Shown one piece after another: positions 25,368-30,843 of a stretch of 64,000 nt of DNA (positions within the stretch are counted from its first letter, which is position 1; each line of letters opens with the position of its first letter). A program made the translations under genes and the position numbers. The notes under the pieces were generated by a model. That model searched no databases. It was not told where the DNA came from and was given only the letters and a program-made list of their open reading frames with translations. Source of the DNA: Glycomyces sp. TRM65418. Its GTDB lineage: Bacteria; Actinomycetota; Actinomycetes; Mycobacteriales; Micromonosporaceae. The stretch is from NCBI RefSeq assembly GCF_019710475.1, contig NZ_JAJFAX010000002.1, positions 434,001-498,000 of the forward strand, read 5' to 3'.

Positions 25368-25529
25368 GTTTTCCACCATGGTCGGTATGTGCCAACCTCA
25401 AAATCCCGCCGCGCCCGTGTATCCCACCGGACTCGGGGGTCTCTTCCCCGGTGAATGACGTGATTCCCGCCCAGCCCGTGGCGTTCGCGGCATTCCGGGC
25501 TCGAGTGCCTCCCGACCTGCCGGAGCCCG

Positions 25530-25554
25530 CGTGGGACCCCACGTGTGGCACGTG
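25530..25554. promoter_or_regulatory. CACGTG-rich inverted repeat, candidate operator
   Basis: CGTGGG-AC-CCCACG (25530-25543) is a perfect inverted repeat. It overlaps two CACGTG hexamers at 25540-25545 and 25549-25554. Its place 75-100 nt before the subtilase start suggests a binding site for a regulator of the cassette. Confidence 0.35.
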
Positions 25555-25630
25555 GAGGGGAGAATCGATCGCGAAGGATCCCCCTCCTCAGAACAACCGC
25601 ATACCCCCCGAGTCAAGCAGAGGAGCTCCC

Positions 25631-27172
25631 ATGCGACTGGTGTTCGCCGATCACGAACCCCATTTGAAGCCCAATCCACGCCGCGACCACATGAGCGGCG
25701 TCCCTGAGTTGTCCTACTCCACTCTGGACCGACACGGCGGTCGAGTGCTGGCCCCGGGACAGGTCGTCCGCACCCCCGGGCGCCCCGCCCCGGTCGGCAC
25801 CATCTACCGCTACGACCGCCTGCTCGTGGACGGGTCGGTCATCCACGACGCCGAAGCCCGCGAGAAGCTCGAAGGCGCGATCCGCCCGACCGGCATGTCG
25901 CTCGAAAGCCGGGCCGCGAGCGCGATCATTCCGGGCCAGGGCTCGTACCGGGTCCCGGTGTTCAGCAATCACGGCGACCAATCCGCGGTCGATGCCTGGT
26001 CGCTGCTCCAGCGACTGCGCACCGCGAACGACGAGACGATCCTGCCGGACGAACTGCTCGACAAGGTCCGCCTGGAGCACCTCATGATCTGCTCGAAGGG
26101 CGGCCCGGGTGTCGGCAGCGGCGAGCCGCCGATCGGCGATACACGTTCTTTCACACTCGGTCGCATCCCGGTCGACATGGTGAACCCGATGCCCGGCCGC
26201 AGGCAACTGGACCGGCGACTGCGTGTGGCCATCCTGGACACCGGCGTTCCTACGAAGCACCCTGCCTTCGACGTTTCCGATCGCACTGAGCGCGAGGACA
26301 CCTTCGTGGTGGTCGACCACGCGTTCCAAGTCAAGCTCGGTGAGCACTCCGATTCGCCCGCGGCTCCGCTCGACGACCCGTGGGAGGGCCCGGTCCACGA
26401 ACCGACTCTCATCGGCGAGGTCGCCAGCCACTTCGGCCACGGCACCTTCATGACCGGCCTGCTCCGGCAGATGTCGCCAGACGTTCAGGTCTACTCGCTG
26501 CGAGTGGTTCACAACGACGGCCTCGCTTACGAGCACGAGGTCATCGCCGCGCTCCACCACGTGGCCGACCAGGTCGAGGCCGCCCGGCGCGGTGACGCAG
26601 AGGCGTTCGGCATCGATGTGGTCGTTCTGGCGATGGGGTACGTGGACGAGAACCCCGAGGACCAGCCCGGCGGCTGGATCGGGGAAGCGGTCAAACGCCT
26701 CTCCGCCCTCGGCATCCCCGTGGTGGCGGCTGCTGGAAACCAGTCCTCGGACCGGCCGTTCTACCCGGCGGCCTTCGCGGCGCACCCGCAGCTCGAGAAC
26801 GCGGCGCCGATCGTGAGCGTCGGAGCCCTGAACCCGAACCGCCATGTCGCGATGTTCTCGAACGAGGGCTCATGGGTCTCGTGCTACGCCACCGGGGCCG
26901 GGTTGGTGAGCACGTACCCGTGCGAGGCCAAGGGGTCGCGGATGCCTGACCGCCGTGTCAAGTCCACGATCCTTGACCGCCACCGCGAGAGCCACGATCC
27001 CGACGACTTCTCGTCCGGATACGCGGTCTGGAGCGGCACGTCGTTCGCCGCGCCTCTGGCTGCGGCGTTCTTGGTGAACGCGATGGCGGATACCGGCATG
27101 GCCGAGGTGGAAGACGCCATTCAAGCGTCAGCGCGTGCACACGAAGCGTTGAAGCAACTGAAGAACCGCTAG
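25631..27172 (+). CDS. Cytosolic S8 subtilisin-like protease of a CHAT-linked cassette
   Basis: A 513-residue subtilase. The catalytic triad is visible as Asp203 (AILDTGVP), His270 (HFGHGTFMTG) and Ser471 (WSGTSFAAPL), with the oxyanion Asn370 (AAAGNQS). Residues 1-195 form an N-terminal region without signal peptide or membrane helix, containing YRVPVFSNHGDQSAVDAWS and a VRLEHLMIC segment; it may be an inhibitory prodomain or a recognition domain. The lack of an export signal argues for action inside the cell, unusual for subtilases. I chose ATG 25631 because of AGGAG upstream. The stop TAG overlaps the TAGCCT promoter element of the sigma-factor gene. Recalled homologues in other actinobacteria sit beside CHAT proteins. 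Confidence 0.85.
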   Translation: MRLVFADHEPHLKPNPRRDHMSGVPELSYSTLDRHGGRVLAPGQVVRTPGRPAPVGTIYRYDRLLVDGSVIHDAEAREKLEGAIRPTGMSLESRAASAIIPGQGSYRVPVFSNHGDQSAVDAWSLLQRLRTANDETILPDELLDKVRLEHLMICSKGGPGVGSGEPPIGDTRSFTLGRIPVDMVNPMPGRRQLDRRLRVAILDTGVPTKHPAFDVSDRTEREDTFVVVDHAFQVKLGEHSDSPAAPLDDPWEGPVHEPTLIGEVASHFGHGTFMTGLLRQMSPDVQVYSLRVVHNDGLAYEHEVIAALHHVADQVEAARRGDAEAFGIDVVVLAMGYVDENPEDQPGGWIGEAVKRLSALGIPVVAAAGNQSSDRPFYPAAFAAHPQLENAAPIVSVGALNPNRHVAMFSNEGSWVSCYATGAGLVSTYPCEAKGSRMPDRRVKSTILDRHRESHDPDDFSSGYAVWSGTSFAAPLAAAFLVNAMADTGMAEVEDAIQASARAHEALKQLKNR

Positions 27173-27175
27173 CCT
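27170..27175 (+). promoter_or_regulatory. -10 element of the cassette sigma-factor gene, inside the subtilase stop
   Basis: TAGCCT ends 6 nt before ATG 27182. Its first three bases are the subtilase stop codon. The sigma-factor gene may therefore have its own leaderless transcript. Confidence 0.55.
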
Positions 27176-27181
27176 CAAGTC

Positions 27182-27799
27182 ATGAACGTGACTTCGGCTC
27201 ATTCGGTGGCCGCCGTGGATTACGACCGGCGCGCGCAGCTCTATCTGGCTGCGCGCGCCGGCGACGGCACTGCGCAGCAGACCCTCGTCGGCGAGCTCAA
27301 TGAGCTCCTCTGGCGAGCGGCCCGCCGTACGGGACTCGACAGGGAGAGTGCTTCGGACGTCGTGCAGACGGCCTGGCTTCGGCTGTGGCACATCGAGAAA
27401 GAGCTGGAACAGCCTCGAGCGCTGACCAAGTGGTTGCTCACCACCGTCAGCCGAGAAGCCTGGAAGCAGATCGGGCACATGCGACGAGAGCTCGTCGCCG
27501 ATCCGATCGACATCCAGGAGGAAGCGGCCCTCGAGGATATCGAGGACGGCTTCGTCCGTGCTGCCGAGCGAGAGGCCGTGCGTCGTGCCTTCCTCGCCCA
27601 ACCAGAACGGTGCCGGCGACTGCTCGCCTTCGTGGCGACCGTCGCCCGGCCCGATTACGACGTCATCGCCGAGGCACTCGGGATGAAAAGGGGGAGCATC
27701 GGACCCACACGGGGCCGTTGCTTGGACAAACTGAGGAAGACGCTCCTGGACGATCCGTCCTGGGGTGGAGGTGAGGAGCGGGATGAAGATGCGACCTGA
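27182..27799 (+). CDS. ECF-type RNA polymerase sigma factor of the CHAT cassette
   Basis: A 205-residue sigma factor. Region 2 spans about 20-90 (SASDVVQTAWLRLWHIE) and region 4 about 125-185 with the helix-turn-helix DVIAEALGMKRGSIGPTRGR. The GSIGPTRGRCLDKLRK wording belongs to an ECF group that, as I recall, is repeatedly found beside CHAT/subtilase genes. Base composition is noticeably less GC-rich than the flanking core genes. There is no adjacent transmembrane anti-sigma factor; the next, overlapping gene is the best candidate regulator. Probable target: the cassette itself, unproven. Confidence 0.85.
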   Translation: MNVTSAHSVAAVDYDRRAQLYLAARAGDGTAQQTLVGELNELLWRAARRTGLDRESASDVVQTAWLRLWHIEKELEQPRALTKWLLTTVSREAWKQIGHMRRELVADPIDIQEEAALEDIEDGFVRAAEREAVRRAFLAQPERCRRLLAFVATVARPDYDVIAEALGMKRGSIGPTRGRCLDKLRKTLLDDPSWGGGEERDEDAT

Positions 27800-28319
27800 A
27801 TACGAGAGTCAGGGTGAATTCGAGCCATTGGACTCCTGCGACGAGCGGATTCTCGCCGTGATCAACGAGCTGCATCGGCGAGACGACCCGATGCCGGAGG
27901 ACCTCAATGAGCGAGTGCAATTTGCGCTCGAACTCGAAGCCGAACTCGACGCACGGGTGGCGCGCGTTTCGCGCTCCAGTGAACTGGTTCTCACACGTGG
28001 GGACGCTGATCTCATTGTAGGCCAGGGTGATCCAGCGTCGATCACGTTCGACTGCGAAACGGTCACGGTTATGGTCACGCCTCGCCCTTCGGCGCTGCGA
28101 GAGCTGCGCCTTGACGGATGGATAGGTCCTGAGGGCACTTACGAAGTTGAACTCAGAAGTCCGGAGGGTTCGAGAAGGGCTTCGACCGATGAGACCGGTC
28201 GGTTCGTTCTCGAAGGTCTGCCCGACGGTCAGATGTTCCAACTGGTGATCCGGCCGGATGAGACGCTGCAGCGGGAAGGGCTACCGGCGGTCGTCGTGAC
28301 GCCTGCGGTGCGGTTGTAG
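27783..28319 (+). CDS. Small cassette protein with C-terminal beta domain (possible sigma regulator)
   Basis: A 178-residue soluble protein that overlaps the sigma-factor gene by 17 nt; GAGGAG lies 5 nt before ATG 27783 (ATG 27789 is also possible). Residues 1-65 are helical and acidic with DPMPEDLNERVQFALELEAE, a segment I recall as conserved in proteins encoded next to such sigma factors. Residues ~75-178 look like two beta-rich pieces: VTVMVTPRPSALRELRLDGW and a carboxypeptidase-regulatory-like ending (ASTDETGRFVLEGLPDG). There is no catalytic motif and no membrane helix. Translational overlap and position suggest an anti-sigma or adaptor role; this is inference. Confidence 0.7.
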   Translation: MKMRPEYESQGEFEPLDSCDERILAVINELHRRDDPMPEDLNERVQFALELEAELDARVARVSRSSELVLTRGDADLIVGQGDPASITFDCETVTVMVTPRPSALRELRLDGWIGPEGTYEVELRSPEGSRRASTDETGRFVLEGLPDGQMFQLVIRPDETLQREGLPAVVVTPAVRL

Positions 28320-28329
28320 CATGTGAAGA

Positions 28330-30843
28330 ATGCTTCACAGTGCCTGGCGCTTGTTCTCACGTGGGCACCGACTTCAGGGTAGGTGGCGCATCTCCGAGGC
28401 CGCCGAGGTGTTCGATGAGGCGCTGAAGCTGCTGGCGTGGAATCCGTCGGCGCCTCCGGAAGCTGGTACTGCACGGGCGAGACTCACTGCCCGAATTCTC
28501 ATCTCCCGTGCTTTGACATGGACTTACTCGGGTGATGCTCCCGCAGGATTGGCCTTGCTCGACCAGGTGGACCGCTTCGTGGATGAGCGGGATCGCGGAC
28601 TGCTGATGCATCAACGGGCGATGATCCTTCACCAGAACGGGCGGCCGGTAGACGCGCTTGCCTGGTTCGATCTCGCCGAACCGATACTCAGAAAGCACGG
28701 TCCCGACTGGACCTATGCAGGGCTGTTCTTGAACCGTGCGAACGCGTTGAGAGACCTGGGAATACTCGGCAAGGGACTGGAGAACGCGACGAGGGCTCGC
28801 GAACTCTTCGCGAAGCTCGGCCGTCGTCTCAACCAAGTGAAGGCGCAGCATGTGGAAGCGCTCTTGCTGCTCGATTTGGGCGAGGTCGCCAAGGCGCTCG
28901 CAGAATTCGAGGAGGTTCGGGCCCAATACCGAGAGCACGCTCCTGAACTGGAAGCGTTCGTCCACGGTTCCAACGCCGATGCGCTTCTCTATGTGGGTAT
29001 GTATCGGCAATCGGCCGAGCACTGGGCTGAAGCCATAGCTGCCTTGCGTCTGGCGGGCGACCATCGCACAGCGGCGATTTACGAGTATTGGCGCGCGGTC
29101 ACCGCTTTCGAAGACAATCAACTGAAGCTCGCCACCGATTGGGCGAAGCGAGCGATGAATTCTCTCTATGCGCAAGGCAATGAGCCGATGGCCTTCTTGG
29201 CGAGACTCCTGATTCTTCAGGGAGAATTCGACTCGGAGACTGAAGGCCCCGACTTCGCCGACAAGGTGTCCCGCCTTTGCGACGCCCTCGAACAGCGCGG
29301 ATGGACCCTCCGGCTCAAGCAGGCCCGTATTTTGGCTGCTCGGGCCCGCATCAGGGCGCGTGACCTCGAAGGCGTGGAAGTCGCCTTGGCGGATGAGGAG
29401 AGCGGCCCGGGCTACGAGGCGCTGGCCGAGGGTTTGGCCAGGCACCTTGCCAAGGCGGAGCTCGCCAGCGCTCGCGGGTTGGATCCGATTCCCGAACTGA
29501 AAGCAGGCCTCGATCAGCTGGACGAGTACCGAATGGCGTTCGGTTCGGTGGAATTCCAGGCGGGAGTCTCCGCCCTCGGCGTGCAGTTGTCCGGCAAAGG
29601 TTTGATCCACACCACCAATCATGGATCACCTGCGGAGATGCTCTGGTGGAGCGAGCGGTCCCGCGCCCAGGGCCTTCGCATCCCCCCGGTCAAATCGGCG
29701 ACCGAACCTGATGCGCGAGAAGCGCTCGGCCGGCTTCGTCAAGCACGTCAACGACTCTGGGACCTCCAAGTACAAGGTTCGGAAGGGAGCGAAGAACTTG
29801 AGCGGGTCCGCCAACTCGAAGAAGAGATCCGCGCCTACGACCGGACCAAGCCCGGACCTGGAGAGCAGGCCGAGCGCATCGCCCCCGATGCCATCCATGA
29901 CCTGGCGAAAGCCCGTGACACCGTTGTGGTCAGCCTTTACGAGGTCGGCGGCGATGTGCGTGCGATTCTCGCGGGGGGCGACGGCATTCAGCATGTCCGG
30001 CTGATGCAGCTCGAAGCGGCCGTGGAACTTGAACGCCGCATGGGAGCTGACTTGGATGCCCTCGGGAAGCCGTTTCGACTTCCGCCCCGCCTCCAGGCGA
30101 GCGTCGAAGGCTCGCTCCGCCGCAACGCCTCCGCGCTCGCCGAAGGCATCTGGGAGCCCATCGCCGCCTACGTTGGCGACCGCCAGGTGGTCATCGTGCC
30201 GCACAGCCGACTCGCCTGGGTGCCCTGGCCGCTGCTGCCGCAGCTCCGCGGGCGGCCGGTCACGGTCTCGCCTTCGGCCGAGGCATGGTGGCGGGCGGTC
30301 CATCGGAGTGCTGCCACCGGCCCCGCCCTCGTGGCGGCCGGCCCTGCGCTCTCCCGAGCGGGCGGGGAGATCGAGACGATCGCGGGTCTCTACCCGGGGG
30401 CGAATCTCATCACCGCAGATAAGTCCGATCCCGAACTCATCCTACGAGCGCTCGACGGTGCCTCGGTCGCCCACATTGCGGCGCACGGCCACCACGAGCC
30501 CGACAACGTCCTGTTCTCGCGCCTGGACTTCGGTCTCGGTCCGCTCAACGCGTACGAGCTCCTCGGTCTGGACCAGCCGCCCGGGCATGTGGTGCTCTCC
30601 TCGTGCGACCTCGGCCGGTCGACCGTGGCAGTCGGGAACGAGACCCTCGGCTTCACCGCGGCGCTCCTGCACGCCGGTACCTCCACTGTGGTCTCCAGCC
30701 TCGGCCGCGTACCCGACGACATGGCCGCCGAGATGATGATCGAGTACCACCGCCGCTGCGCCGCGGGCGCGACTCCCGCCGAAGCCCTCGCCGCCGTCGG
30801 TGAGCACCGCCCCTGGCATCCCTTCGTCGCGTTCGGCGCCTGA
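28330..30843 (+). CDS. TPR-CHAT caspase-like protease
   Basis: An 837-residue protein. Residues ~1-430 are a helical tetratricopeptide-like array (repeated A-x3-F/W-x2-A patterns such as EAAEVFDEALKLL, DALAWFDLAEPIL). A charged coiled stretch near 470-530 follows, then a CHAT (caspase-HetF associated with TPRs) peptidase domain from ~545. The catalytic dyad is His719 in HIAAHGHH and Cys759 in VVLSSCDLG; the helix TLGFTAALLHAGTSTVVSSL follows as in other CHAT domains. CHAT enzymes are caspase-clan cysteine proteases, some activated by ligands of their TPR part. The start is 10 nt after the previous stop. The TPR half is lower in GC than the CHAT half. Confidence 0.9.
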   Translation: MLHSAWRLFSRGHRLQGRWRISEAAEVFDEALKLLAWNPSAPPEAGTARARLTARILISRALTWTYSGDAPAGLALLDQVDRFVDERDRGLLMHQRAMILHQNGRPVDALAWFDLAEPILRKHGPDWTYAGLFLNRANALRDLGILGKGLENATRARELFAKLGRRLNQVKAQHVEALLLLDLGEVAKALAEFEEVRAQYREHAPELEAFVHGSNADALLYVGMYRQSAEHWAEAIAALRLAGDHRTAAIYEYWRAVTAFEDNQLKLATDWAKRAMNSLYAQGNEPMAFLARLLILQGEFDSETEGPDFADKVSRLCDALEQRGWTLRLKQARILAARARIRARDLEGVEVALADEESGPGYEALAEGLARHLAKAELASARGLDPIPELKAGLDQLDEYRMAFGSVEFQAGVSALGVQLSGKGLIHTTNHGSPAEMLWWSERSRAQGLRIPPVKSATEPDAREALGRLRQARQRLWDLQVQGSEGSEELERVRQLEEEIRAYDRTKPGPGEQAERIAPDAIHDLAKARDTVVVSLYEVGGDVRAILAGGDGIQHVRLMQLEAAVELERRMGADLDALGKPFRLPPRLQASVEGSLRRNASALAEGIWEPIAAYVGDRQVVIVPHSRLAWVPWPLLPQLRGRPVTVSPSAEAWWRAVHRSAATGPALVAAGPALSRAGGEIETIAGLYPGANLITADKSDPELILRALDGASVAHIAAHGHHEPDNVLFSRLDFGLGPLNAYELLGLDQPPGHVVLSSCDLGRSTVAVGNETLGFTAALLHAGTSTVVSSLGRVPDDMAAEMMIEYHRRCAAGATPAEALAAVGEHRPWHPFVAFGA

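What the first reader, a model, noticed from the sequence alone, without database searches (positions are those of the whole stretch)
25631..30843. Four-gene cassette: cytosolic subtilase, ECF-type sigma factor, small beta-rich protein and TPR-CHAT protease
Two proteases of unrelated clans (subtilase triad Asp203/His270/Ser471; CHAT dyad His719/Cys759) flank a sigma factor and an overlapping small protein with no membrane anchor. All four are on one strand with short or overlapping junctions. CHAT proteins are known caspase relatives, and some act as ligand-activated proteases in defence. I recall similar gene sets in other actinobacteria, but know of no described function. Inference: the TPR part senses a signal, proteolysis (CHAT or subtilase with its ~195-residue N-terminal region) relieves the small protein's hold on the sigma factor, and the cassette or a stress/death programme is induced.
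Basis: partly seen in the sequence, partly recalled or inferred. Interest (0 to 1): 0.85.

Follow-up and report, generated by a model that had tools for sequence, protein, structure and literature searches.

The report
Caspase-like switch controlling a sigma factor
A soil actinomycete carries four neighbouring genes, two different proteases plus a transcription switch and its probable lock, that recur together across many actinobacteria and look like a CRISPR-free version of the CRISPR-guided caspase circuit; how they work is inferred, not shown.

Summary
The four genes are real, at the stated coordinates, in a Glycomyces genome, and far from a chance grouping. With the small protein alone as bait, the sigma gene is its same-strand neighbour in 79 of 79 named-genome loci with room to show it, TPR-CHAT lies nearby in 66 of 66 and the subtilase in 56 of 66. 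In a 394-genome draw, 91 of 95 genomes with the small protein also have TPR-CHAT.

New: (1) TGTATC, a likely -10 element, heads the operon in 76 of 151 loci against 4.06 expected; (2) the small protein is modelled as two helices, a disordered linker and an Ig/FN3-like domain, and the variable linker holds one conserved Arg (R72; 118 of 119); (3) the TPR-CHAT model resembles Csx29 and separase.

Best reading: activated TPR-CHAT cuts the small protein at R72, freeing the sigma factor, which switches on its own operon, subtilase included. It works like Csx29-Csx30-CASP-sigma but is not a member: the genome has no RAMP or Cas1 match. Sigma binding, cleavage, trigger and subtilase target are untested.

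The parts
25400..25424 (+). predicted promoter of the cassette: AAAATC, 12 nt, TGTATC (25418-25423), C
   Evidence: TGTATC invariant in 15 of 15 aligned Glycomyces-type rows; within 600 nt of the first cassette gene in 76 of 151 loci against 4.06 expected; strict pattern has two distinct sites in the own 5.09 Mb genome, this being one, with 2 matches of the reversed control
25631..27172 (+). subtilase (S8), 513 aa, triad D203/H270/S471, no signal peptide evident
27182..27799 (+). ECF-type sigma factor, 205 aa
27783..28319 (+). small protein, 178 aa, predicted soluble anti-sigma factor and protease substrate: helices 18-34 and 41-64, disordered 63-82, beta-sandwich 87-178
27996..27998 (+). codon of Arg72, predicted P1 residue of the cleavage site in the linker
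   Evidence: weighted conservation 0.99 in 202 homologues; 118 of 119 in a second, wider set
28330..30843 (+). TPR-CHAT cysteine protease, 837 aa
30484..30486 (+). codon of catalytic His719
   Evidence: 130 of 130 loci
30604..30606 (+). codon of catalytic Cys759
   Evidence: 130 of 130 loci

Best explanation
The cassette is a cytosolic, CRISPR-independent protease-to-transcription switch. At rest the small protein holds the ECF sigma factor through its N-terminal helices (inferred). A signal read by the TPR superhelix activates TPR-CHAT (inferred; trigger unknown). TPR-CHAT cuts the small protein after Arg72, in the linker between the helices and the Ig/FN3-like domain (predicted from conservation and models). 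The freed sigma factor transcribes from the TGTATC promoter at the operon head (conservation of the element shown, its use by this sigma factor inferred), giving positive feedback and raising the subtilase, the likely output enzyme (inferred).
Against: No binding, cleavage or expression data. R72 is also kept in sequences whose locus shows no TPR-CHAT: the split genomes (TPR-CHAT found in trans) and 9 of 18 stretches from other classes of the phylum, where I did not search in trans. A conserved Arg could serve sigma binding. The acid I read as the S1 residue (E680) is also present in the aligned Csx29 sequences. Half of the loci lack TGTATC and the -35 is weak. 26 of 117 genomes with TPR-CHAT have no small protein at the threshold. 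The N-terminal helices matched no anti-sigma domain in the listed rows, which barely test them.
Confidence: 0.55

Rival explanations
1. The subtilase, not TPR-CHAT, cuts the small protein; TPR-CHAT acts upstream by releasing the subtilase from its N-terminal region, so the order is CHAT, subtilase, sigma factor.
For: The subtilase has a 196-residue N-terminal region and, in many relatives, a repeat-rich linker just before the catalytic domain; in some the repeats contain R-G or R-S (PFTRG, PYTRG, AVRSPF).
Against: Five of seven tested genomes lack an S8 relative at E 1e-20 but keep the Arg and TPR-CHAT; most repeats have no Arg (PATEG, PFMKG, PYTQP, GHPITGG, GYGDGV).
Confidence: 0.15
2. The module is a cell-death or anti-phage device: the switch raises the subtilase, which destroys cell proteins as an executioner.
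For: Two catalytically conserved proteases. In Cellulomonas-type loci a divergent trypsin-like gene with PFTEP repeats stands in place of S8 (Pfam match in L123, L124, L129), with TGTATC before it in L124 and L129, and before a similar repeat gene without Pfam match in L122, so other proteases join the predicted regulon.
Against: No PADLOC match of weight, no relative in viral contigs, in 22 of 22 genomes of the genus, housekeeping neighbours. No toxicity data. This is compatible with the best explanation and differs only in the output.
Confidence: 0.25
3. The small protein is not an inhibitor but a positive partner or adaptor of the sigma factor, and R72 is a contact residue, not a cleavage site.
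For: R72 is conserved also where no TPR-CHAT is seen locally.
Against: The linker is predicted disordered and its length on both sides of R72 varies by 15 and 12 residues, odd for a fixed contact; TPR-CHAT nearly always accompanies the small protein.
Confidence: 0.2

Closest known systems
Csx29 (TPR-CHAT) / Csx30 / CASP-sigma of type III-E CRISPR (Craspase; PMC10028731, passages read)
   Different: No RAMP or Cas1 match in the whole genome; small protein 178 aa without detectable match to PDB Csx30, against Csx30 of 565 residues cut at 427-429 in a loop of its C-terminal domain; subtilase partner; Csx29 model 14.6 bits against cut-off 300
DdvA, listed in the PDB as a transmembrane anti-sigma factor with a CHAT domain (8rot, 8rw5)
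   Same: Closest solved sequence to our CHAT domain (E 5.2e-10) and a CHAT/anti-sigma combination
   Different: By its title one transmembrane protein; here CHAT and the predicted anti-sigma factor are separate. I read no paper on it (one search found only one paper that mentions it)
Separase
   Different: Eukaryotic, cuts cohesin; sequence match negligible (E 0.98)
Protease-controlled anti-sigma factors such as RseA and RsiW
   Same: Anti-sigma factor removed by proteolysis to free a sigma factor (as told in PMC10028731)
   Different: RseA is cut in the membrane by DegS; here all four products look cytosolic

Membership tests
Type III-E CRISPR protease arm (Csx29/Csx30/CASP-sigma) | TPR-CHAT protease with His/Cys dyad | tested here: met
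Type III-E CRISPR protease arm (Csx29/Csx30/CASP-sigma) | Score above the curated Csx29 model cut-off | tested here: not met
   NF041237 14.6 bits against 300
Type III-E CRISPR protease arm (Csx29/Csx30/CASP-sigma) | Cas7-11 / CRISPR parts in the genome | tested here: not met
   RAMP PF03787 and Cas1 PF01867: no match in the own genome, controls ring in 4 and 9 of 14; no Rfam match in the window
Type III-E CRISPR protease arm (Csx29/Csx30/CASP-sigma) | Csx30 homologue | tested here: inconclusive
   No Csx30 among PDB sequences at E up to 1; remote homology not excluded
Type III-E CRISPR protease arm (Csx29/Csx30/CASP-sigma) | Protease cuts the sigma inhibitor on a trigger | not testable with these tools
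   needs purified proteins
CHAT peptidases (PF12770) | Domain score over cut-off and conserved dyad | tested here: met
   98.4 bits against 24; 130 of 130
Subtilases (PF00082) | Domain score over cut-off and conserved triad | tested here: met
   75.2 bits against 21.8
ECF sigma factors (TIGR02937) | Score over cut-off | tested here: met
   54.8 bits against 42.9; solved ECF sigma factors match, best CnrH E 9.7e-11
Zinc-binding anti-sigma factors | HxxxCxxC motif (motif recalled, no call) | tested here: not met
   Absent in the translated sequence, which has two isolated Cys
Soluble anti-sigma factors in general | Binds and inhibits its sigma factor | not testable with these tools
   Gene overlap and strict pairing only
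Known anti-phage systems (PADLOC-DB 2.0.0) | Match to a system model | tested here: not met
   Only GajA, 16.1 bits on the TPR part

The most novel reading that the evidence does not exclude
An apoptosis-like two-tier protease circuit of the actinobacteria: a caspase/separase-like initiator cuts a soluble anti-sigma factor at one conserved Arg, and the freed sigma factor amplifies the circuit and an executioner protease (subtilase, or trypsin-like in Cellulomonas). Stand-alone modules of this kind would be the source from which CRISPR type III-E recruited its caspase arm.
Probability: 0.25. Interest if true: 0.92.

Novelty: new variant of a known kind. Interest (0 to 1): 0.78.

Why it matters
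Few bacterial caspase-like CHAT proteases have a known substrate (my recollection, no call). Here a likely substrate, a predicted cut site and a transcriptional output are named for a module whose small protein is found in 95 of 394 sampled Actinomycetes genomes (a lower bound, nine candidates scored per genome) and in other classes of the phylum. It makes directly testable whether caspase-type control of sigma factors exists outside CRISPR, and offers an outgroup for how Craspase arose.

Tried and rejected
Unproductive or rejected: (1) Rfam on the window, no match. (2) PADLOC GajA match judged spurious. (3) Subtilase linker repeats as CHAT sites: some carry R-G or R-S, most do not; kept as unexplained. 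(4) 'TGA inside' flags in TPR-CHAT of six genomes: in the one read in frame the stop lies before the gene (the second sequence translated there was out of frame and says nothing; four not looked at). (5) Regulon search: own genome, 3 overlapping matches at two distinct sites, the second before a peroxiredoxin-like gene, 2 for the reversed control; 11 other genomes, three matches in three genomes, control none; two lie at the sigma promoters already seen and the third appears to. No wider regulon is claimed. (6) A regex check of triads gave false misses through wrong frames; replaced by profile alignment. (7) D796 as S1 acid: His in 4 of 41. (8) No Csx30 match by sequence; no anti-sigma domain among the listed fold matches, which span about residues 79-178. 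(9) sigma-70 promoter and terminator scans at chance level. (10) Recurrent neighbours are housekeeping or lineage genes. (11) Paper searches on CHAT with sigma factors, subtilases or carboxypeptidase-like domains listed only the Craspase paper as relevant (searches show 20 of 28 and 20 of 2,066); PMC7826278 (ECF classification) is not held, so the ECF group was not assigned. (12) Plasmid collection: one record with the small protein, of chromosome size.

Rows left out. One search kept the best 80 of 103 relatives. One search counts loci with at least 800 nt upstream (sigma) or at least 4 kb both sides (CHAT, S8): 20 of 21 Glycomyces, 46 of 59 others, 51 of 60 of the class draw. In the class draw sigma was adjacent in 58 of 58, CHAT and S8 each in 42 of 51, and the nine misses have neither locally; one locus (L219) shows no small protein there. 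Of ten S8-less named loci, six were listed gene by gene. Flanks were fetched for 60 places and for 18 of the 22 genomes outside the class. In those 18 stretches the sigma profile hits 16, CHAT 9, S8 8. A3 contains one frame-broken row (L033). The promoter alignment has 15 rows (window plus 14; seven loci left out because my script did not find the start; L064 and L070 with mis-set starts); one search covers all 21. The one sequence of 119 without R at column 72 (L081) has an Arg three residues on and may be misaligned.
Full report
What is there. The window lies in a Glycomyces genome (nearest named relatives are Glycomyces; window = G000:C12:434001-498000). Four genes sit head to tail on the + strand: subtilase 25631-27172, ECF-type sigma factor 27182-27799, small protein 27783-28319, TPR-CHAT protease 28330-30843. 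Domain scores pass curated cut-offs for the subtilase, the sigma factor and CHAT; the small protein has only a weak carboxypeptidase-regulatory-like match. An MFS transporter follows 33 nt after TPR-CHAT, but in four of five other Glycomyces-type stretches read (L046, L048-L050; present in L047) no MFS relative follows, so I leave it out.

Is it more than chance? Yes. A profile of the small protein alone (A1) found 103 loci in named genomes, 80 kept. Among 21 Glycomyces-type loci the sigma gene is the same-strand neighbour in 21 of 21, and TPR-CHAT and S8 are present in 20 of 20 with enough flank; among 59 loci of other genera the figures are 58 of 58, 46 of 46 and 36 of 46. In a draw of 394 Actinomycetes genomes 95 have the small protein (a lower bound, nine candidates scored per genome). 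Flanks taken for 60 places show the sigma gene adjacent in 58 of 58 and TPR-CHAT and S8 each in 42 of 51 with room. The same draw searched with the TPR-CHAT profile at E 1e-60 gives 117 genomes: 91 have both, 4 only the small protein, 26 only TPR-CHAT, 273 neither (Fisher p about 1e-59, not corrected for kinship; two candidates scored per genome). Eleven genomes whose sigma/small pair stands alone were searched: 11 of 11 have TPR-CHAT elsewhere, ten nearly full length, one partial in a 75%-complete genome; in the ten read it lies beside a divergent S8-family gene. So the families stay linked even when the operon is broken in two.

Outside the class the picture is looser. A phylum draw finds the small protein in 30 of 396 genomes at E 1e-6, 22 of them outside the class. 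In 18 stretches fetched from these, the sigma profile hits 16, CHAT 9, S8 8; I did not search the other nine genomes for TPR-CHAT in trans. Two of the genomes hold repeated small-protein/CHAT/S8 units with one sigma-factor hit in the 19.9 kb read (L253, L254).

Both proteases look active. CHAT H719 and C759 hold in 130 of 130 loci; S8 H270, N370 and S471 in 126 of 127 with one gap, D203 in 109 of 127 with 18 gaps and no substitution.

Promoter. Upstream of the subtilase, 15 aligned Glycomyces-type rows share A/T-rich bases, then TGTATC. TGTATC lies within 600 nt upstream of the first cassette gene in 21 of 21 Glycomyces-type loci and 55 of 130 others, 76 of 151 in all, against 4.06 expected from each locus's own frequency. 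It also stands before the divergent repeat-rich genes of L122, L124 and L129, trypsin-like by Pfam in L124 and L129, and before other genes near distant copies. In the own genome the strict pattern has two distinct sites, the cassette being one; the reversed control matches twice. I infer that the sigma factor drives its own operon; a wider regulon is not shown.

Known or new. Craspase is the nearest in kind: Csx29 cuts Csx30, which binds and inhibits CASP-sigma (PMC10028731, abstract and passages). Ours differs: no RAMP or Cas1 match in the genome, a much smaller protein without detectable match to Csx30, a predicted Arg site in the main linker, a subtilase partner, and a Csx29-model score far below cut-off. 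DdvA (PDB 8rot), titled a transmembrane anti-sigma factor and holding a CHAT domain, shows that the two roles meet elsewhere. Library searches listed only the Craspase paper as relevant; subscription papers and preprints are not held, so novelty in print is not certain. I file it as a new variant of protease-controlled sigma signalling.

Limits. 

Noticed in passing
S8 linkers of L040, L041, L043, L104, L203, L205, L218, L247 and others: Many subtilases of the family carry short tandem repeats (GNPYTRG, GSPATEG, PFMKG, PYTQP, GHPITGG, GYGDGV, AVRSPF) at one place just before the catalytic domain; trypsin-like genes of Cellulomonas loci carry PFTEP repeats. Role unexplained.
   Followed up: partly
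window 25425-25630: The leader of about 205 nt between the predicted promoter and the subtilase start has blocks conserved among Glycomyces; no Rfam match.
   Followed up: no
window 25631-30843: Third-position GC of the cassette genes (0.67-0.84) is low against 38 other genes of the window (median 0.94) although the small gene is in 22 of 22 genomes of the genus.
   Followed up: partly
L253, L254 (G776:C77, G544:C7): Clustered copies: three small-protein, two CHAT and two S8 hits with one sigma hit in L253; two CHAT and two S8 hits with one sigma hit in L254.
   Followed up: no
L195, L196, L200: Large genes that look like P-loop/LuxR-type regulators carry TGTATC about 35-58 nt upstream beside distant copies of the module; no domain search was run on them.
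   Followed up: no
G000:C12:137758-138141 (L002): A second, weaker CHAT match (39.7 bits) in the same genome; context not resolved.
   Followed up: partly
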